DNA of 64,000 bases from Keratinibaculum paraultunense (GTDB taxonomy: Bacteria; Bacillota; Clostridia; Tissierellales; Tepidimicrobiaceae): assembly GCF_016767175.1 (NCBI RefSeq), contig NZ_CP068564.1, forward strand, positions 2,046,001 through 2,110,000. Direction: 5' to 3'. Below the pieces are notes generated by a model. That model did no database searches, had not been told where the DNA came from, and saw only the letters and a list, made by a program, of their open reading frames with translations. A program made the translations under genes and the position numbers. Shown piece after piece: positions 23,204-31,871 of this stretch. Numbering within the stretch: position 1 is the stretch's first letter; each line of letters starts with the position of its first letter.

Positions 23204-23806
23204 TTATTGTAACTCACCTAATGTTGAAGCAATTCTCACCGCTATTGTTCCACTAAGGGCAGAACCATCTGTTGACGTAATATTCACATATCTTGTTTTA
23301 GATGAAAATAAGCCAACTTTACCTTCATAGTATTTTGTAACTCGTTTTCCTGCGTCAACTGTGAACTCTTCTATGACATCTCCAGTACTAGTCTTATATG
23401 TGATAGTTACATTATATTTCCTAGAACTTGTATTATCTATCCAAACCTTATAGTAAGTCATATCCGAAGTCAAATCAAATCTAACAGATTGAGATCCATC
23501 TGAGTCTGTTAAACTCTTATCAATAACTTTTTCTGATGCCATTAGGGATATGTCATCTGTATCTACATTGACAGTATAAAAACTTTCATCATTCTGTAAA
23601 TTACTCAAATCCTCCTCAATAGTTTTTATACAGATATCTTTACCAGCATTTAAGGCTCTTAATTCATTTACATTCAACGGCTCAATTTCCGTCCTAAGTA
23701 GCTTATCTATCATTATCCCATCTTTACTAGTAGCATATACATTAATTGAAATTAATGAAACAACCACTACAAGTGCTAGTATGACACTAAAAAACTTTTT
23801 CCTCAT
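23204..23806 (-). CDS. Small secreted protein of unknown function
   Basis: The 200-residue product has a signal peptide (about 1-27, ending NVYA), an acidic linker and a C-terminal beta-sandwich-like region of about 90 residues (DMTYYKVWIDNTSSRKYNVT and following). The C-terminal part resembles in style, not clear identity, the other secreted proteins of this region. The ATG at 23806 has GGAGG nine bases upstream; the frame opens slightly earlier. A CGTTATATA motif lies about 120 bases upstream but without the paired upstream block seen for the other copies. Confidence 0.65.
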   Translation of the reverse strand: MRKKFFSVILALVVVVSLISINVYATSKDGIMIDKLLRTEIEPLNVNELRALNAGKDICIKTIEEDLSNLQNDESFYTVNVDTDDISLMASEKVIDKSLTDSDGSQSVRFDLTSDMTYYKVWIDNTSSRKYNVTITYKTSTGDVIEEFTVDAGKRVTKYYEGKVGLFSSKTRYVNITSTDGSALSGTIAVRIASTLGELQ

Positions 23807-23909
23807 TTCCATTACCTCCTTTCTAATCATGTAATTTTTTAAATTAATGTTTGCATTTTAAATTTTCATTGGTATCACATCCTTTCATTTTATAGAGCTT
23901 TTTCTGCTC

Positions 23910-24386
23910 TTACTTATATAACGTTTGAAAATTTGTAATACTATTTTCTGGACGATAAGAAAATCTAATTTTATAACCTTGGTTATTTATAAACTCCATA
24001 TTTATGACATTTCCTAGCACTTCATAATTTTTTATTAAATATCCTTTAGGCAAATATTCCAAAGTCCACTCTTTCTTCTTAACAATTATCTCTTCATCTC
24101 TATTTGTACACATCTATTTCTAACTCTTTTATATAATCTTTAGAATTCTTTCAAAAAAAGACTACTTAGATATTGTGAATATAAACAGCTTTCATGAGTT
24201 GGATTCATTAATCCCATTTCTATTTAACAAAAACATTCCTATTATTAAAATAAAAATACTTATCGCCAAAAAACTACCGATAACCCTGATATTCAATGAG
24301 TTTAATTCTGAAATAACCGTAGGGTTAATTGTTCTAATGCAGTTACTATATAGCAAAGATACATAGTAATAGATACTTATTGACAT
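23910..24386 (-). pseudogene. Remnant of a membrane anti-sigma-like (DUF4367-type) protein
   Basis: Two short frames look like parts of one lost gene. The upstream one (24192-24386) has a single membrane helix. The downstream one (23910-24113) has WTLEYLPKGYLIKNYEVLGN, which resembles the start of the extracytoplasmic domain in the intact anti-sigma-like protein at 28748-29716. The C-terminal part is missing. It suggests that an ECF sigma/anti-sigma unit once preceded the secreted-protein gene downstream. Confidence 0.4.
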
Positions 24387-25378: not shown

Positions 25379-26560
25379 ATGTTAAAAATAGTTTATCCTA
25401 TTTGCTGTGGAATTGATGTCCACAAAAAATTTATTGTTGCTACCATTGCTTCCACTGAAAATAATATTACTACCTACAAAACTAAAAAATTTACTACTTA
25501 CACTAATGATCTTCTCAACTTTAAAAAATGGTTATATGACAATAATTGTTATGATATATGTATGGAAAGCACTGGCAAGTACTGGATTGCCGTTTTTAAC
25601 ATCCTCAAAGATTCCTGTAGCATCACTTTAGCAAACCCTAAGTATATCAAGCTATACCTGGTAAAAAAACTGACAAGAAAGATTCTATCTGGATTGCTGA
25701 TTTGCATAAGCATGGTCTTATAAAAGGTAGCTTTATTCCCCCTAGAAATATTAGAGAACTTAGAGACTTAATGCGTTATAAGACCAAATTGGTTAGTGTT
25801 CGTTCAAGTGAGAAAAACCGTATTCAAAATTCCCTTACCGTATCTAATATTATGATATCCAATATAGTCTCTGATTCTTTTGGCAAATCTGCTTCTACAA
25901 TTATCAAATATGCCATGGAACACCCTGATGAAATAGATACAGATTATACTAGTTTTCTTCATAAAAGTATGCTTCATAAGGCAAATGAAATTAATATGTC
26001 CATGCAAGGTACTATTTCACAGGAGCAAGCATCTAAGATGAATGTATGCTTTAACCACCTTAGTTATGTTGAAATTTGTATTTCTCAAATTGATGAAGCT
26101 ATATTCTTAATTGCCAAAGATTTTAAGTCTCAAATAGAATTGTTTGCTACTATTCCAAGTATAACAACTAAATCTGCTACCGCTATTATTTCTGAAATCG
26201 GTGTAGATATGTAGTATTTCCTGATTCTAAAAATCTTTGTTCATGGGCTGGATTAGCACCGCAAAATAATGAAAATGCTGGTTGTTCGTATTAGCCGTGC
26301 TGGTGTTTATATCAAGCCATTGCTTGTTCAATGTGCAAATGCTGCTATTAAAGATAAAAAATGTTCTTATTTTTATTACAGATATCAAAGCATTAAAAAA
26401 CGTCGTGGTCATAAAAGGGCTATTATTGCAATAGCTAGAATGCTATTAGTTTGTGTATATAATATTCTGGTTAAAAACGAGCCTTTTGACTTTGAACTAT
26501 ATGAAAATTATTTTGATAATTGCACTAAAACAAGCAAGCAACCAAATAAGGATTATAACT
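25379..26560 (+). pseudogene. IS110-family transposase, frameshifted
   Basis: The N-terminal DEDD domain is recognisable: Asp in CCGIDVHKKFI, Glu in MESTGKYW, then in another frame Asp residues in DKKDSIWIADLHKHG. The second half carries the IS116/IS110 C-terminal signature (IPSITTKSATAIISEIG, then LCSWAGLAP). One indel near 25655 and another at 26214 break the frame. Its 3' end abuts the tail of a small secreted-protein gene on the other strand. Confidence 0.88.
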
Positions 26561-26990
26561 TCCAACTTCCAGAGGTAGCAGTTGCTTTTTCGCCATCCAC
26601 ATCTACTACAACTTTAGTACGATATTCAATACCTGGTGTTCCTTTATAACTTTTTGATACAAATACATTACCAGTTCCACTGAAATTCCATGATTTTACG
26701 CTTGCCCATTTTCTAGAAGTATATTTTTCTAAATACATTGTTCCGCTAATTGAACTTGAAGAACTTTTAGCATTTATATATACCTCTGGATAAAGAGTAG
26801 TGCCTGATGCAGAAATATCTATTAAGATATTACTTATTTCATCCCAAAGTGGAGTAACCACTTGGTAACTTATATTTGATGTTACTTATTCTTGTTGCTC
26901 CGCTGCATAAGCGGTACTTACTCCGCCATTTCCAGCAATTAGAGCAATCATTATTGCTATTGGTGCTACTTTTGTTTTCTTAAGTTTCAT
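26553..26990 (-). pseudogene. Small secreted protein, copy A, with in-frame TAA after the signal peptide
   Basis: From ATG 26990 (GGAGG eight bases upstream) the frame gives a clear signal peptide (MKLKKTKVAPIAIMIALIAG, ending TAYAA), then EQQE and a TAA at 26886-26888. The same frame continues without another stop for 110 residues to 26553 with a beta-rich domain (YLEKYTSRKW, then GTGNVFVSKSYKG). Either a nonsense mutation, readthrough, or restart at GTG 26861. The first 261 coding bases plus the promoter are identical to copy B. Confidence 0.6.
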
Positions 26991-27038
26991 AAAATTCCTC
27001 CTTAAATTTTTTTGCTGCTTACCTATATAACGCATGAG
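26730..27038. repeat. 309-bp direct repeat, copy A
   Basis: Identical by eye, base for base, to 28281-28589. It spans promoter motif, ribosome site, signal peptide, TAA stop and the first half of the mature region of copy A. Outside the repeat the sequences diverge at once on both sides. Confidence 0.85.
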
Positions 27039-27055
27039 ATTGGGGAGAAAGGACG
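27024..27055 (-). promoter_or_regulatory. Candidate alternative-sigma promoter of copy A
   Basis: On the minus strand CGTTATATA (27024-27032) follows a CGTCCTT block (27049-27055) by 16 bases. It matches the better-conserved pairs before copy B and the tiny ORF, where the block is TGTCCCC with 15-base spacing. It lies about 35 bases before the start codon. Confidence 0.35.
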
Positions 27056-27182
27056 TATTCTCTAACCTTAATAAAGCTATTTATAATTCATTGAGTTCTT
27101 CTCATAAGGTAATTAATATTTGACTAGTATGATTATAGTTGTTATAGTAAGTTTTTTAGTTTCAACTTTAGCCCCCCCTAAA

Positions 27183-27210
27183 ATATAGGGTGTAAGAATA
27201 CACCCTATAT
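27183..27210 (-). terminator. Terminator of the repeat-containing secreted-protein gene
   Basis: Eleven-base perfect arms (ATATAGGGTGT) with a 6-base loop and a T-rich tail on the minus strand. Confidence 0.7.
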
Positions 27211-27265
27211 AATTTAATTAATATATAATCTTTTTTATAAAGCTTTCCGGATTGGTCACATTTAA

Positions 27266-27946
27266 TTAGTAGGTAGAAATTGAGAATTTTGCTGATGCAG
27301 ATTTGCTCTCATATGTGCTGACCTTTACAACCATCTCGTAGTTGCTATAAGAACCCGGATCTATTACAACTACTTCATTTGCTCTTACATTAGGGACCCA
27401 ATCACTATCCATTCCGTTAGTAAACGCTGCACTAATATTGACTGTTGGCATTGTGCTAGGTAAAGAACCTACTCCTATAGCTGCATATGAATCTGGTGAT
27501 ATAATAAATGCACTGCCTAATTGTTTACCATTTGTTCCAGAACTATTTGAAATAGGAACATTTACGTTGCCAGACCAAGAATAAGAAAATAGTGAAATCT
27601 CTGTTTCATCGTTAGATTCAAAAGCTGCTTTTTCTTCTTCTGTCATAGCTCTAATACCATAACTCATTCCATTACTTAATTTACCAGTTTCTCTCCAATC
27701 TCCCGTTTTGAATATATCAATTTCTCTAGTTTCTTTAGGTTCAAAAGCTGCTTTGATTTGGCTAATATCCCCAGATTCAAAGGCTACTTTCTCTTCTTCT
27801 GTCATGGCTCTAATGCCATAACTTATACCATTACTTAACTGACCAGTTTCTCTCCAAATACCTGTTTCAAATATACTAGCTCCATAAACATTACCAGTCA
27901 TTGCGACTAATAAAAAAATTGATAAAATCACACTAAGTTTTTTCAT
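27266..27946 (-). CDS. Secreted protein with two internal 36-residue repeats
   Basis: The family is not recognised. A signal peptide covers about residues 1-22 (ending NVYG). Two near-identical tandem units follow: FETGIWRETGQLSNGISYGI at about 26-60 and FKTGDWRETGKLSNGMSYGI at about 78-112, both continuing RAMTEEEKxAFES. The last 100 residues are a Ser/Gly-rich beta-type domain. A strong AGGAGG precedes the ATG. It lies between secreted copies A and B but lacks their promoter motif. Length 226 residues. Confidence 0.75.
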   Translation of the reverse strand: MKKLSVILSIFLLVAMTGNVYGASIFETGIWRETGQLSNGISYGIRAMTEEEKVAFESGDISQIKAAFEPKETREIDIFKTGDWRETGKLSNGMSYGIRAMTEEEKAAFESNDETEISLFSYSWSGNVNVPISNSSGTNGKQLGSAFIISPDSYAAIGVGSLPSTMPTVNISAAFTNGMDSDWVPNVRANEVVVIDPGSYSNYEMVVKVSTYESKSASAKFSISTY

Positions 27947-28102
27947 TTATTTTTCCTCCTTTATATTTAATAGAAAACATGTGACCACTACTAGAACAAA
28001 GTTCGTCTTAATAAATCGTGGGAACCATCTCCTTTCTTTAACAACTGAGACTATTAATGTCTCCTTTGCTGATTTTACTTGTTAAATCTCTTTAAAATTA
28101 AA

Positions 28103-28541
28103 TTAAAACCTGATAGGATTTGTTGAAACAACATCAGCTTGCTCTCCTGCCACAGTCACTACAACTCGTACACGGTACTCTGTATTTGAAACCCCATTAC
28201 GTGTTTTTGATATAAATACATTTCCAGTGCCTTCAATTTTCCATGAAGTATCAGTCACCCATTTCCCGGAAACATTTTTTTAAATACATTGTTCCGCTAA
28301 TTGAACTTGAAGAACTTTTAGCATTTATATATACCTCTGGATAAAGAGTAGTGCCTGATGCAGAAATATCTATTAAGATATTACTTATTTCATCCCAAAG
28401 TGGAGTAACCACTTGGTAACTTATATTTGATGTTACTTATTCTTGTTGCTCCGCTGCATAAGCGGTACTTACTCCGCCATTTCCAGCAATTAGAGCAATC
28501 ATTATTGCTATTGGTGCTACTTTTGTTTTCTTAAGTTTCAT
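28103..28541 (-). pseudogene. Small secreted protein, copy B, with in-frame TAA and a frameshift
   Basis: The signal peptide, the TAA (28437-28439) and the first half are identical to copy A. At the repeat edge, a run of seven A residues (28274-28280 on the plus strand as T) shifts the frame by one. The rest then reads NVSGKWVTDTSWKIEGTGN and on to a TAA at 28103. This C-terminal half is homologous to, but clearly different from, that of copy A. It needs readthrough and frame restoration to make a full protein. Confidence 0.6.
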
Positions 28542-28589
28542 AAAATTCCTCCTTAAATTTTTTTGCTGCTTACCTATATAACGCATGAG
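28281..28589. repeat. 309-bp direct repeat, copy B
   Basis: The partner of 26730-27038, with an offset of exactly 1551 bases along its whole length. The junction at 28281 lies in the homopolymer where copy B loses its reading frame. Confidence 0.85.
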
Positions 28590-28605
28590 GAAAGAAAAGG
28601 GGACA
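28575..28605 (-). promoter_or_regulatory. Candidate alternative-sigma promoter of copy B
   Basis: On the minus strand TGTCCCC (28599-28605) and CGTTATATA (28575-28583) are separated by 15 bases, exactly as at 28700-28730. The upstream block lies outside the 309-bp repeat, so its conservation is independent of the duplication. Confidence 0.45.
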
Positions 28606-28617
28606 TCTTTTTAGAAT

Positions 28618-28665
28618 TTATTTTTTAAGAATTTTAGGTACTATAAATATCTCCTTAAATCCCAT
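28618..28665 (-). CDS. Possible 15-residue peptide ORF
   Basis: ATG at 28665 is preceded by AAGGAGG at a good distance and encodes MGFKEIFIVPKILKK before a TAA. It sits at the same distance from a conserved promoter motif as the secreted-protein starts. It may be a genuine small amphipathic, cationic peptide or the stub left by a deleted secreted-protein gene. There is no family evidence. Confidence 0.25.
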   Translation of the reverse strand: MGFKEIFIVPKILKK

Positions 28666-28699
28666 TAAAAATCCTCCTTATTGTTATTAGGTTCTTATT

Positions 28700-28730
28700 T
28701 ATATAACGCACAAGGAGGAAAAAGGGGACA
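28700..28730 (-). promoter_or_regulatory. Candidate alternative-sigma promoter of the tiny ORF
   Basis: TGTCCCC (28724-28730, minus strand), a 15-base spacer and CGTTATATA (28700-28708). It lies just downstream of the anti-sigma-like gene. CGT-containing -10 boxes are common for ECF sigma factors, one of which is encoded 1 kb away. Confidence 0.45.
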
Positions 28731-28747
28731 TATTTATTTAATAATTT

Positions 28748-29716
28748 TTATTTCAAAATATTTTCTGCTACTTTTATAACCTCATCTTTATCTAAGTTTG
28801 CTGAAATATGACATTCAACATCATCCTGATACCATATTAATTTGGTCTTTTCATCAGTTTGCCACATATAAGCATTTGATTCTTTAAAAATAAATTCTTC
28901 TATTTCTGCATCTTCCGTATCATAATATGATTGAACTCCACTAGATGATGAAAAGAATTTTACATCAAGCCTCTGATTATTCTCTGTGGCATAATTATAA
29001 ATAAGCATGTTATTTCCTTCATTAACATTAACCAATTTAAAATCCATAGGAACATAATTGATTTTTAATGACTTTAGATCGATATTATCTTTATTTATAT
29101 TTTGTGGTATGAAGATGCTAAACTTAGGGAATGTTACAACTACCCAATCAAAAAACCTTTCATGTACTTCCGCATTAACTACTAAAACAGTAGAAAAACT
29201 TAAAAAACATACTATTATAAATGCAGCTACTCTTTTAACCATTTTCATGAATATACTATTAGTCTTTTGTGAAATCTTAATATCTTTTAGTTTCCGTCTG
29301 AAGCTCTTAGAATAGTTAGGTTTGTGTAATGCTAGGGTATTATCATAGTCTTTTGTCTCTTCTATAAGAGCTATTTCACAAGCTTTTTTCATAGAGTTAT
29401 CATCAATCCATGAATTTTTAAGTCCCATAAAAGCAGATAGCATTTTTTGTATATAACGTAATTTACCTATAACATTTTCTATCTCAAGTATCTTTTCTAT
29501 TTTAGAAGGAGGATTATTAAAACAATATCGAAAGAAAAGAATATTACGATACTCCAATGGTAATAAACCTATTTTTATAGCTAATTGATCAACCTGCTCT
29601 TCACTTAATGTTTGATACTTAATACTATTCATATTTAATTTAGTGATTGTTTCTAATTCATTCTGAAAAGATAATTGACATACCTCTTTCATAATATTGT
29701 TAGCTATTTCGGACAC
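28748..29716 (-). CDS. Membrane anti-sigma-like protein with DUF4367-type domain
   Basis: A cytoplasmic part of about 160 residues (with LPLEYRNILFFRYCFNNPPS resembling sigma-region-4-like helices) is followed by one membrane helix (VAAFIIVCFLSFSTVLVV). An extracytoplasmic domain of about 130 residues follows (INYVPMDFKLVNVNEGNN, then VIKVAENIL), like DUF4367. It starts with GTG and overlaps the sigma gene by 17 bases, so it probably restrains that sigma factor. No sequence points to the signal sensed. Confidence 0.75.
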   Translation of the reverse strand: MSEIANNIMKEVCQLSFQNELETITKLNMNSIKYQTLSEEQVDQLAIKIGLLPLEYRNILFFRYCFNNPPSKIEKILEIENVIGKLRYIQKMLSAFMGLKNSWIDDNSMKKACEIALIEETKDYDNTLALHKPNYSKSFRRKLKDIKISQKTNSIFMKMVKRVAAFIIVCFLSFSTVLVVNAEVHERFFDWVVVTFPKFSIFIPQNINKDNIDLKSLKINYVPMDFKLVNVNEGNNMLIYNYATENNQRLDVKFFSSSSGVQSYYDTEDAEIEEFIFKESNAYMWQTDEKTKLIWYQDDVECHISANLDKDEVIKVAENILK

Positions 29717-30257
29717 TTATATCACCTTCTTCATAATATAGACGTAGTTTTTTTAAAATGCGTTGACCACGTTTTTTTGCAGCTTCTTCAGTAATTCCTA
29801 AAAGCTCTGAAATATCTTTAATTCTCATTTCATTGACAAAGCGTAGATGAATAAAAATTTTTTCATCATCTGAGAGTCTATTAATACAGGAAAGTAATTG
29901 TTCTTTATTTACTTTTTCTAAATATTCTTCTTCAATATCATAATCTCCTTCGTTGTGATCAAAATAATCTACATTCTCTACATATATGATTTTCTTACGT
30001 TTTCTTATGATATTCATTGTTTCATTCTTTAATATTATAACGCAGTAGGATTCTATTTGGGGACATGGCAAAGCAGATATTTTTTCTATATTGTCAATAA
30101 TCTTTAAAAATGTTTGTGATACAGCTTCTTCTGCATCAAATTTATTCTTTAACATATTAAAAGAAATATTATACATTTTTACATTCATTTTTGAAAAAAT
30201 CCTATTAATAAAATCTACTTCGTCATCTGTTATCACACCAAATAGTATAATTATCAA
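29700..30257 (-). CDS. ECF-type RNA polymerase sigma factor
   Basis: Region 2 is seen in YNISFNMLKNKFDAEEAVSQ followed by a FLKIIDNI segment, and region 4 in RLSDDEKIFIHLRFVNEMRI, then ISELLGITEEAAKKRGQRIL. At about 185 residues it has no sigma-1 or sigma-3 domain, as in ECF factors. A GTG at 30266 opens the frame; the TTG at 30257 has GGGGTG six bases upstream and is preferred. The membrane protein encoded next overlaps it. It is the best candidate to read the repeated CGTTATATA promoters nearby. Confidence 0.85.
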   Translation of the reverse strand: MIIILFGVITDDEVDFINRIFSKMNVKMYNISFNMLKNKFDAEEAVSQTFLKIIDNIEKISALPCPQIESYCVIILKNETMNIIRKRKKIIYVENVDYFDHNEGDYDIEEEYLEKVNKEQLLSCINRLSDDEKIFIHLRFVNEMRIKDISELLGITEEAAKKRGQRILKKLRLYYEEGDISVRNS

Positions 30258-30291
30258 AATTTTCACCCCATGAGCATTAAGTAGTAACTCA

Positions 30292-30322
30292 ATTATAACA
30301 TTAATTTACCAAATAATAACAA
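30292..30322 (-). promoter_or_regulatory. Possible SigA-type promoter of the sigma gene
   Basis: TTGTTA (30317-30322) and TATAAT (30292-30297) on the minus strand, with a long 19-base spacer. The CGTTATATA motif is not present here, so there is no sign of autoregulation. Confidence 0.35.
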
Positions 30323-30414
30323 TTTTATTTGCTAACAAATATTGAATTATTTTAGATTTTAGGGTATCATCTCTCTAATTACCCTATGTCATATATATTT
30401 TACCCTATTTTAAA

Positions 30415-30452
30415 GGGTCAAAAAAGGGTGTTTTTTCACCGATTTTTGACCC
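30415..30452 (-). terminator. Terminator of the RlmD-type gene
   Basis: A long hairpin (outer arms GGGTCAAAAA with ATTTTTGACCC, inner GGTG/CACC) downstream of the methyltransferase stop, with T-rich flanks. Confidence 0.75.
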
Positions 30453-30494
30453 AAATTTGTTACTCAAACCACTACATATTGTAGTCAAGTCTTG

Positions 30495-31871
30495 CTATTT
30501 GTCCTCCAAACCACAATACGTCATCAGAATTATACTCTCAACGTGTGTCGTTCTCGGGAACATATCCATTAACTTCATCTTATCTATTTTATATCCCCTA
30601 TCCATAAACACCTTCAAATCCCTAACCAATGTAACAGGATTACAGGATACATATACAAAGGTTTTAGGATTAAAGTCTACTATCTTGTTTATAGCTTTAG
30701 GATTAATCCCATCTCTAGGTGGGTCTATTATTATTAAGTCAGGAGTCTCCTTTAGATTATCTACCTCTTTTAAGACATCTCCTGCAATAAACTCCACATT
30801 GTCAAGACCATTTAGCTTAGCATTTTCCCGAGCCATCTCTACAGCTTCTTCAACAATCTCTATCCCTATTACCCTTTCACATACTGGTGACAAAATCTGG
30901 GCTATGGTACCTGTACCAGAGTATAAGTCGAATACTACATTATTCTTTTCATCTCCAACAAATTCCCTTACTATGGAATACAACTTTTCTGCACCAAAGG
31001 TATTAGTTTGAAAAAATGAGAAAGGGGATATTTTAAACTTCAATCCTAATATTTCCTCTATTACATAATCCCTCCCATATATTAAATTTAACTCATCTAC
31101 TTTAATAGCATCGGCTAAACTATCATTTATAGTATGAAATATTCCTACAATATTTCCTTTTATCTTCTCACATCCAAGAAGCAAATCCTTAAATTCCTCT
31201 AGATTTATCTCTCCTTGAGAACTAGTTACTAAATTTATAAGTATTTCCCCTGTTGATAAAGCTTTTCTAATAACTAGATGCCTCAATATCCCAGTATGAC
31301 TTTTTTTATTATAGTGAGGTATTCCCTTTTCCCTAAAATAATTTAACACTTCCTTTAATATGACTACAAAATCCTTATCTACAATATTGCATTCTGTAAC
31401 CTCCACAATTTCATAAAATTTTCCCCTTTTATGAAGACCTAAAGACAATGGCCCTCCCTTCTCTATATCCCCAAAAGTATATTCCATCTTATTTCTATAT
31501 CCTTCTATACGGGGACTTTCTTCTATTCCTAAATAGTTAAAATCCTTTATACCTTCTCTTTCAAACAGTTCAAGTACTAAACTTTCCTTAAATTTCAATT
31601 CCTCTTCATAGGGAATTCTTTGATAAGTGCAACCTCCACAACTTCCAAAATGAGGGCAACCTATTTCCGTTTCTATAGGGGATTTGTCCAATATCTCAAG
31701 TATTTTCCCTTCAATATAATCCATCTTCTTTCTGCCTAAGAGAACCTTAACTCTTTGCCCTTTTATACCACCTTTACATATGATCTTTTTACCTTCAAAT
31801 TCTCCTACAGATTTATTTGAAAAGATATTATCTTTTATTTCCATTTCAATTATTTTCTTTTTCCTTGCCAT
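30495..31871 (-). CDS. rlmD: 23S rRNA (uracil-C5)-methyltransferase, RlmD/RumA family
   Basis: An N-terminal TRAM domain is followed by Cys72, Cys78 and Cys81 (CPHFGSCGGC), which with a later Cys ligate a 4Fe-4S cluster. The SAM-binding Rossmann domain has VFDLYSGTGTIA, and the catalytic motif is VYVSCNPVTLVRDL. The enzyme makes 5-methyluridine in 23S rRNA; B. subtilis RlmCD modifies both 747 and 1939, so the site is not certain. The ATG at 31871 has GGAAGGAG upstream and gives 458 residues. Confidence 0.92.
   Translation of the reverse strand: MARKKKIIEMEIKDNIFSNKSVGEFEGKKIICKGGIKGQRVKVLLGRKKMDYIEGKILEILDKSPIETEIGCPHFGSCGGCTYQRIPYEEELKFKESLVLELFEREGIKDFNYLGIEESPRIEGYRNKMEYTFGDIEKGGPLSLGLHKRGKFYEIVEVTECNIVDKDFVVILKEVLNYFREKGIPHYNKKSHTGILRHLVIRKALSTGEILINLVTSSQGEINLEEFKDLLLGCEKIKGNIVGIFHTINDSLADAIKVDELNLIYGRDYVIEEILGLKFKISPFSFFQTNTFGAEKLYSIVREFVGDEKNNVVFDLYSGTGTIAQILSPVCERVIGIEIVEEAVEMARENAKLNGLDNVEFIAGDVLKEVDNLKETPDLIIIDPPRDGINPKAINKIVDFNPKTFVYVSCNPVTLVRDLKVFMDRGYKIDKMKLMDMFPRTTHVESIILMTYCGLEDK

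What the first reader, a model, noticed from the sequence alone, without database searches (positions are those of the whole stretch)
27024..28730. Recurrent two-block promoter motif beside an ECF sigma gene
On the minus strand TGTCCCC, 15 bases, CGTTATATA occurs at 28700-28730 and 28575-28605, and a near match (CGTCCTT, 16 bases, CGTTATATA) at 27024-27055. Each lies about 35 bases upstream of a start codon. The upstream blocks lie outside the 309-bp repeat in at least one copy, so the similarity is not just duplication. A neighbouring ECF sigma/anti-sigma pair offers an obvious reader, giving a small regulon of secreted products.
Basis: partly seen in the sequence, partly recalled or inferred. 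Interest (0 to 1): 0.5.

Follow-up and report, generated by a model that had tools for sequence, protein, structure and literature searches.

The report
Sigma-factor promoters hidden in hairpins
A repeated DNA motif beside a bacterial stress-type sigma-factor gene looks like that factor's own promoter, and in many relatives the same motif sits inside an RNA hairpin that should silence read-through messages and is also spelled out inside the sigma-factor gene itself.

Summary
The motif is real and very probably the promoter of the adjacent ECF sigma factor. In the 2.3-Mb genome the strict pattern occurs only at two near-identical ECF/anti-sigma loci. Among 249 genomes of the order it is in 12 of 17 with a match to this ECF and 7 of 232 others. 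In close relatives it precedes a small, predicted secreted protein; in this window the three matching ORFs are cut short.

(1) The promoter spacer and the next gene's Shine-Dalgarno (SD) form an inverted repeat, usually followed by a T-run. RNA started at the promoter lacks the 5' arm; read-through RNA from the sigma operon would fold it, hiding the SD or terminating. A motif-blind test finds such complementarity at 30 of 78 starts after ECF/anti-sigma pairs, against 7 of 228 controls. Window copy A has it; B and C do not.

(2) The ECF gene carries a copy of its own promoter in its region-2.3 codons: the best match in the sigma/anti-sigma stretch in 32 of 36 loci, following locus-specific variants down to synonymous codons. 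It may be an intragenic promoter feeding the anti-sigma.

Known relatives: phage T4 gene e, B. subtilis sigG, C. glutamicum sigH-rshA. All computational; no transcripts were mapped.

The parts
29700..30266 (-). ECF sigma factor gene (188 aa)
   Evidence: Pfam Sigma70_r4_2 E 2.7e-10 and NCBIfam sigma70-ECF E 3.9e-18
30036..30065 (-). Intragenic copy of the promoter inside the ECF gene: TGTCCCC-16-CGTTATA, codons of CPQIESYCVII (region 2.3; region number recalled)
   Evidence: best match to promoter A in the whole sigma/anti-sigma stretch, 14 of 14 letters, best elsewhere 9
28748..29716 (-). Putative membrane anti-sigma factor (322 aa, C-terminal DUF4367, N-terminal part resembling sigma region 4)
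   Evidence: Pfam DUF4367 E 2e-17; hhalign 86% probability to the ECF profile; hydrophobic stretch read from the sequence; anti-sigma role inferred from position and domain
28700..28730 (-). Promoter A: -35 TGTCCCC (28724-28730), -10 CGTTATATA (28700-28708)
   Evidence: orthologous position in relatives
28710..28719 (-). 5' arm of hairpin A (TCCTCCTTGT), inside the promoter spacer
   Evidence: fold; p=0.005 against shuffled spacers
28672..28681 (-). 3' arm of hairpin A (ATAAGGAGGA) carrying the SD, followed by TTTTT
28618..28665 (-). 15-codon ORF behind promoter A
28575..28605 (-). Promoter B; SD hairpin not significant (p=0.51)
28437..28541 (-). Cargo ORF behind promoter B, stopped by TAA after 34 codons; the frame after it departs from copy C further on
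27024..27055 (-). Promoter C (CGTCCTT-16-CGTTATATA); SD hairpin not significant (p=0.38)
26553..26990 (-). Cargo reading frame behind promoter C: 34 codons, TAA, then the same frame open as ORF 26553-26861
27266..27946 (-). 226-aa predicted secreted protein between promoters B and C, with an internal duplication; could be read from B
   Evidence: no Pfam family above its cut-off

Best explanation
The motif is the promoter recognised by the adjacent ECF sigma factor (in the close clade TGTCCC[CT], 14-16 nt, CGTTATATA). Placement gives three functions. (a) After the anti-sigma gene it drives a small predicted secreted protein. There its spacer is complementary to the SD of that gene, and a T-run usually follows. 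Transcripts started at the promoter lack the 5' arm and are translatable. RNA reading through from the sigma/anti-sigma operon folds the hairpin, which hides the SD and/or terminates, so the cargo is made only when the sigma factor is free. (b) Inside the sigma gene the same -35/-10, written in region-2.3 codons, works as an intragenic promoter that raises anti-sigma supply when sigma is active (negative feedback). (c) In other, distant loci the promoter instead lies upstream of the sigma gene. Shown by sequence: motif, placement, complementarity, covariation, T-run, codon-level matching. Inferred: sigma dependence, start site, silencing or termination of read-through, activity and effect of the intragenic site. 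In the window itself only copy A keeps the hairpin.
For: Promoter. 12 of 17 ECF-bearing genomes carry the strict pattern against 7 of 232 others (Fisher 3e-12), and one of the 7 (G040) sits directly after an anti-sigma-like gene. In 9 of 121 distinct ECFs a site lies upstream of the ECF itself; five of these nine are ECFs 33-38% identical to the window's.

Hairpin. Downstream sites, 14 groups: Fisher 1.5e-11; sites upstream of the ECF, 9 groups: 0.11. Motif-blind: 30 of 78 against 7 of 228 gene starts at p<=0.01, Fisher 3e-14. Own spacer pairs with its own SD region better than foreign spacers, -16.5 against -10.9 kcal/mol, permutation p 5e-5, 24 of 42 sites used. Close clade: 96.9% of cells paired, 3 of 10 pairs changed on both sides, slid versions 47-75%. 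T-run of 4 or more after the SD in 23 of 30 hairpin starts, 4 of 39 downstream starts without a hairpin, 21 of 228 controls.

Intragenic copy. Best match in sigma+anti-sigma in 32 of 36 loci; own versus foreign promoter p 5e-5 (40 of 77 loci); rare codons match the promoter (His CAC 12 of 12, usage 0.22; Arg CGG/CGC 6 of 6, usage 0.17); upstream promoters in 0 of 49 loci with the copy against 9 of 72 without (p 0.011).
Against: No transcript data. In one search, 5 of 14 downstream groups (L059, L074, L076, L078, L079) have no significant hairpin, and window promoters B and C (kept apart as broken) have none (0.51, 0.38). Left out: Alk2, Deflu, G040 and G234, whose p were 0.17, 0.21, 0.81 and 0.046; their ORFs are short or broken; L096 (G015), whose SD is gone, was not scored. 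48 of 78 motif-blind starts do not reach p 0.01. Of 28 motif-bearing starts, 17 fail the strict helix threshold. In one search own spacers rank only 17th and 14th for L174 and L176. Four of 36 loci lack the intragenic copy as single best match (G144, G143, L223, and G248b, which is beaten by a second downstream promoter). Loci are related, so p values overstate independence. The -10 of the intragenic copy is often only partial. A housekeeping promoter upstream of the ECF was not established, and 63 of 121 ECFs show neither an upstream nor an intragenic site by these patterns.
Confidence: 0.75

Rival explanations
1. The inverted repeat is simply the intrinsic terminator of the sigma/anti-sigma operon; overlap with the next gene's SD and with the promoter is compactness, not translational control.
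For: T-run of 4 or more after the SD in 23 of 30 hairpin starts; A-runs pairing with it in several loci, e.g. L173, L223, L165.
Against: The 3' arm holds the SD in 30 of 32 scored downstream and window sites by the loose test or by fold (a free-standing terminator need not); loops are often long and the tool's terminator scan does not list the window site. One search scored only pairing with the SD region, so it cannot separate the two. Not exclusive: both can be true.
Confidence: 0.3
2. The inverted repeat is a DNA operator (dyad around the -10) for a repressor.
For: Perfect dyads exist in some loci, e.g. L212 and L227.
Against: Arms differ in sequence from locus to locus, use G-U pairs (L217, L219; U-G changes), and the 3' arm follows the SD; a protein operator would be expected to keep its sequence.
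Confidence: 0.05
3. The match inside the ECF gene reflects protein constraint or shared descent / gene conversion, not an active promoter.
For: The segment is conserved in protein; in the close clade only 5 amino-acid-invariant codons fall in it, so the synonymous test there is weak (mean major-codon fraction 0.95 against 0.82 at 59 other codons).
Against: The match covers -35 and -10 at promoter spacing, follows CCC/CCA/CAC/CGG/CGC/AAC variants including synonymous ones, and the 9 loci with a detected upstream promoter lack it.
Confidence: 0.25
4. Chance or mere duplication of a repeat.
For: Copies B and C share a 300-nt identical block.
Against: Genome-wide restriction to ECF loci and conservation over divergent orthologues.
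Confidence: 0.01

Closest known systems
Phage T4 gene e, soc, 49 and I-TevI late promoters with SD-hiding hairpins (PMC3014915, passages read)
   Same: Long early transcripts fold a helix over the SD; for gene e, transcripts from late promoters just upstream of the SD lack the 5' part of the structure and are well translated.
   Different: Here the promoter belongs to a chromosomal ECF sigma factor, the 5' arm is the -35/-10 spacer itself, a T-run usually follows, and the design recurs with different sequences in many loci.
Bacillus subtilis sigG read-through hairpin (PMC5942855, passages read)
   Same: A hairpin of 20+ bp is proposed to block translation of read-through RNA from the upstream operon and cannot form in RNA from the sigG promoter.
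   Different: There the silenced gene is the sigma factor; here it is the target of an ECF, and covariation over many loci is seen.
Corynebacterium glutamicum sigH-rshA (PMC3489674, abstract and passages read)
   Same: sigH and rshA are cotranscribed from housekeeping promoters; a SigH-controlled promoter within sigH drives only the anti-sigma gene.
   Different: Here the site is written in the region-2.3 codons of the sigma gene and follows the locus's own target promoter sequence; its activity is not measured.
ECF sigma/anti-sigma systems of Firmicutes (general knowledge, recalled)
   Same: Sigma gene, adjacent membrane anti-sigma gene, two-block promoters.
   Different: -35 TGTCCC/TGTCAC and variants; the anti-sigma carries a region-4-like N-terminal part. 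A 2020 C. difficile study says consensus sequences of its three ECFs remained to be identified (PMC7438776, passages read).

Membership tests
ECF sigma-dependent promoter | Two conserved blocks at near-fixed spacing, placed before genes of the ECF locus | tested here: met
ECF sigma-dependent promoter | Presence follows presence of the cognate ECF | tested here: met
   12 of 17 against 7 of 232 genomes
ECF sigma-dependent promoter | Transcription lost without the sigma factor | not testable with these tools
   no RNA data
T4 e / sigG-type read-through-silencing hairpin | SD lies in the 3' arm of a helix whose 5' arm lies upstream of the start site | tested here: met
   window promoter A met, B and C not met; 5 of 14 downstream groups not significant
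T4 e / sigG-type read-through-silencing hairpin | Promoter-born RNA lacks the 5' arm | tested here: inconclusive
   the arm lies between -35 and -10, so any start after the -10 omits it; start sites not mapped
T4 e / sigG-type read-through-silencing hairpin | Reduced translation of read-through RNA | not testable with these tools
   needs reporters
Intrinsic terminator | Stem followed by a U-run | tested here: inconclusive
   23 of 30 hairpin starts have a T-run of 4 or more, but the tool's own terminator scan (loop 3-8 nt) does not list the window site
Sigma-dependent intragenic anti-sigma promoter (sigH-rshA type) | Cognate promoter sequence inside the sigma gene | tested here: met
Sigma-dependent intragenic anti-sigma promoter (sigH-rshA type) | Housekeeping promoter upstream of the sigma gene | tested here: inconclusive
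   24 promoter-like sites in 26000-31000 against 27.2 in shuffles
Sigma-dependent intragenic anti-sigma promoter (sigH-rshA type) | Sigma-dependent transcript covering the anti-sigma gene | not testable with these tools
   no RNA data
Known Rfam RNA family | Match to a curated covariance model | tested here: not met
   0 matches up to E 1 in window 26000-31000

The most novel reading that the evidence does not exclude
In a group of clostridial ECF loci the sigma gene is under selection to spell its own promoter: region-2.3 codons, and with them the amino acids, are shaped by the -35/-10 that the same protein reads. This intragenic promoter gives automatic negative feedback through the anti-sigma, while the target promoter doubles as half of a hairpin that silences every transcript not started by that sigma factor. 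ECF specificity could then be read straight from the sigma gene.
Probability: 0.5. Interest if true: 0.8.

Novelty: new variant of a known kind. Interest (0 to 1): 0.62.

Why it matters
Target promoters of ECF factors are hard to predict. If a sigma gene carries a copy of its own promoter, specificity can be read from the gene and tested at once with reporters. The nested hairpin would explain how a target gene directly behind the sigma operon stays silent until the sigma factor is free, a compact switch that could be reused in synthetic circuits. It would also be a clear case of regulatory DNA constraining protein sequence.

Tried and rejected
Chance and duplication alone were rejected. A trans regulon was looked for: apparent trans hits in G197:C47, G238:C68 and G015:C19 sit beside anti-sigma fragments; G040:C19 sits directly after an anti-sigma-like gene; G162:C17 lies in a locus with another ECF of the group; the sites in G234:C91 lie some kb behind another ECF. 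The other matches in genomes without the ECF (G032, G087, G189, G242, G014, G005) have unrelated spacers and look like chance; I did not study them further.

The conserved CGTTATATA inside the anti-sigma gene (KLRYIQ codons) showed no -35 partner by eye and was not pursued.

A synonymous-codon test in the close clade alone was too small to decide (5 codons). Searching the class with the single ECF protein found 2 of 391 genomes, one of them the window's own; a 15-sequence profile found 23 of 391. Rfam gave nothing for 26000-31000. A Pfam search of five whole cargo proteins and one piece gave no family above its cut-off; a model of a relative's cargo (three-sequence alignment, confident from about residue 50 on) gives weak matches to assorted beta-sandwich folds, so its function stays open. 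Paper searches for DUF4367 (none) and for the -10 text with 'sigma factor' (one paper, judged unrelated from its listing) gave no earlier report; the listings gave the precedents cited or nothing closer by title and abstract. Only four papers were opened, and subscription journals are not covered.

Selection choices: the 42 sites folded were picked by me. Some (L213, L174, L226, L202, L200, L168, L176) I fixed after I had seen the intragenic match, which could favour them. The 25 sites tallied by hand, all printed before that, give 21 of 25. locates the promoter without such a choice.

Full report
What is there. On the minus strand the window holds an ECF sigma gene (29700-30266) and an overlapping putative anti-sigma gene (28748-29716, DUF4367). 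Three copies of the two-block motif follow: A at 28700-28730, B at 28575-28605, C at 27024-27055. Behind A is a 15-codon ORF. Behind B and C lie the two copies of a repeat (300 nt identical) that begin a signal-peptide protein and stop after 34 codons at the same in-frame TAA. At 11 of 13 close-clade sites outside the window the corresponding gene is an intact protein of 143-146 aa; the two exceptions are the second locus of this genome (24 codons) and G234. So the direct cargo in this genome looks decayed, although the sigma and anti-sigma genes are open and a 226-aa predicted secreted ORF lies between B and C.

Is it more than chance? In the whole genome the pattern GTCCN{15,20}CGTTATA occurs six times, only at this locus and at a second locus whose ECF is 98% identical. 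In 249 genomes of the order, TGTCCCN{15,17}CGTTATA occurs in 19; 12 of these are among the 17 with an ECF match at E<=1e-20, and 7 are among the other 232 (Fisher 3e-12). One of the 12 (G004) has only the intragenic copy, and the two hits in G234 lie behind another ECF of the group. The reversed control pattern also gives scattered matches over the 249 genomes, but only one (in G197) falls in the 17. Five of the 17 (G114, G126, G150, G161, G198) lack the strict pattern; four of them (all but G198) show variants such as AGTTATATA or TGTCAC beside their ECF.

Promoter logic. In the close orthologues the site lies a few tens of nt after the anti-sigma stop, and its -10 ends 30-45 nt before the cargo start. 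In distant cousins the same motif also lies upstream of the ECF itself (L076, L077, L119, L079, L059, L060). This is what a self-recognised ECF promoter predicts.

The hairpin. In the close clade the spacer (TTTTTCCTCCTTGT) is the reverse complement of the SD region (ACAAGGAGGA). In more distant loci both arms have changed together: CCTCCTTCATTT/AAATGAAGGAGG (L212), CCCCCTCTCTCATT/AATGAGAGAGGGGG (L227), CCTCCTTCTT/AAGAAGGAGG (L165), and, with a different -10, a 22-bp dyad at L223. Tests: (i) spacer against shuffled spacer, 14 downstream groups, Fisher 1.5e-11, 9 groups of sites upstream of the ECF 0.11 (five downstream groups not significant; B and C of the window not significant). (ii) Without using the motif, first gene starts after ECF/anti-sigma pairs: 30 of 78 at p<=0.01 against 7 of 228 tandem-gene controls; at p<=0.05, 39 against 21. 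(iii) Own against foreign spacers, 24 of the 42 sites: -16.5 against -10.9 kcal/mol, p 5e-5; own spacer first or second in 14 of 24, worst ranks 17 and 14. (iv) Close-clade covariation, 13 sequences: 96.9% paired cells, three pairs with changes on both sides. (v) T-runs: mean longest run 4.7 after the SD in 30 hairpin starts against 1.85 in 228 controls. (vi) Among 604 gene starts in the fetched loci, 11 of 28 with the motif upstream pass a strict helix threshold and 7 of 576 without it do; 6 of those 7 are ECF loci with a diverged -10.

Reading. RNA started at the ECF promoter begins after the -10 and cannot contain the 5' arm; RNA from further upstream can. The hairpin therefore should act only on read-through RNA, hiding the SD, ending transcription at the T-run, or both. 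This is the logic of phage T4 gene e and of the proposed sigG read-through hairpin.

The intragenic copy. Two of the six genomic matches lie inside the ECF genes (30036-30065 in the window). Lined up by protein, the same codons in other loci spell the promoter of their own locus: TGTCCC, TGTCAC, TGTCCA, TGTCGG, TGTCGC, TGTAAC, and -10 forms CGTTA, TGTTA, GGTTA. Of 40 sites taken (42 less window B and C), 36 have the ECF on the fetched stretch; in 32 of these the segment is the single best match to the locus's own promoter in the whole sigma/anti-sigma stretch (exceptions G144, G143, L223, and G248b, where a second downstream promoter scores higher). Among 40 of 77 loci with TGT and GTT at the two key codons, own matches beat permuted ones (589 against a maximum of 554 in 20,000 permutations); the -35 triplet equals the codon in 32 of 40, and in 35 of 40 after correcting three loci whose promoter precedes another start. 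Codons are often those the promoter needs, not those the genes prefer. Upstream promoters were found in 9 of 72 ECFs without the copy and 0 of 49 with it; 63 show neither by these patterns. Intragenic copy and hairpin go together (30 of 40 against 9 of 37). The simplest reading is an intragenic sigma-dependent promoter that feeds the anti-sigma gene, as measured for rshA in C. glutamicum. It is inferred, not shown.

Limits. Everything is computed from sequence. Loci are related, so p values are indicative. Start sites, sigma dependence, termination and translation effects need experiments. The region numbers of sigma factors are recalled. Papers were seen as abstracts or passages only.

Noticed in passing
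window 23204-24113 (-): ORF 23910-24113 looks by eye like the C-terminal piece of a second DUF4367-type anti-sigma, followed near 23923 by CGTTATATAAGTAAGAGCAG and a predicted secreted ORF (23204-23830); a nearly identical leader follows a full ECF/anti-sigma pair in L162. Probably the remnant of another ECF unit.
   Followed up: partly
window 29327-29716 (-): The N-terminal part of the putative anti-sigma resembles sigma region 4 (hhalign probability 86% to the ECF profile; no Pfam sigma match), as if the inhibitor grew from, or mimics, its target.
   Followed up: partly
window 28274-28573 and 26723-27022: Two 100%-identical 300-nt repeat copies carry the same in-frame TAA; the open product would be a signal peptide plus a few residues.
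   Followed up: no
window 27266-27946 (-): Predicted secreted 226-aa protein with an internal duplication (103-nt copies 85% alike).
   Followed up: no
G000:C1 1496460-1497976 (L037): Second, 98% identical ECF copy in the same genome, with its cargo ORF also short (24 codons).
   Followed up: partly
L041:7596-8024 and relatives: Cargo proteins (143-146 aa in the close clade) are modelled as a confident beta-sandwich in one case but matched no Pfam family above its cut-off.
   Followed up: partly
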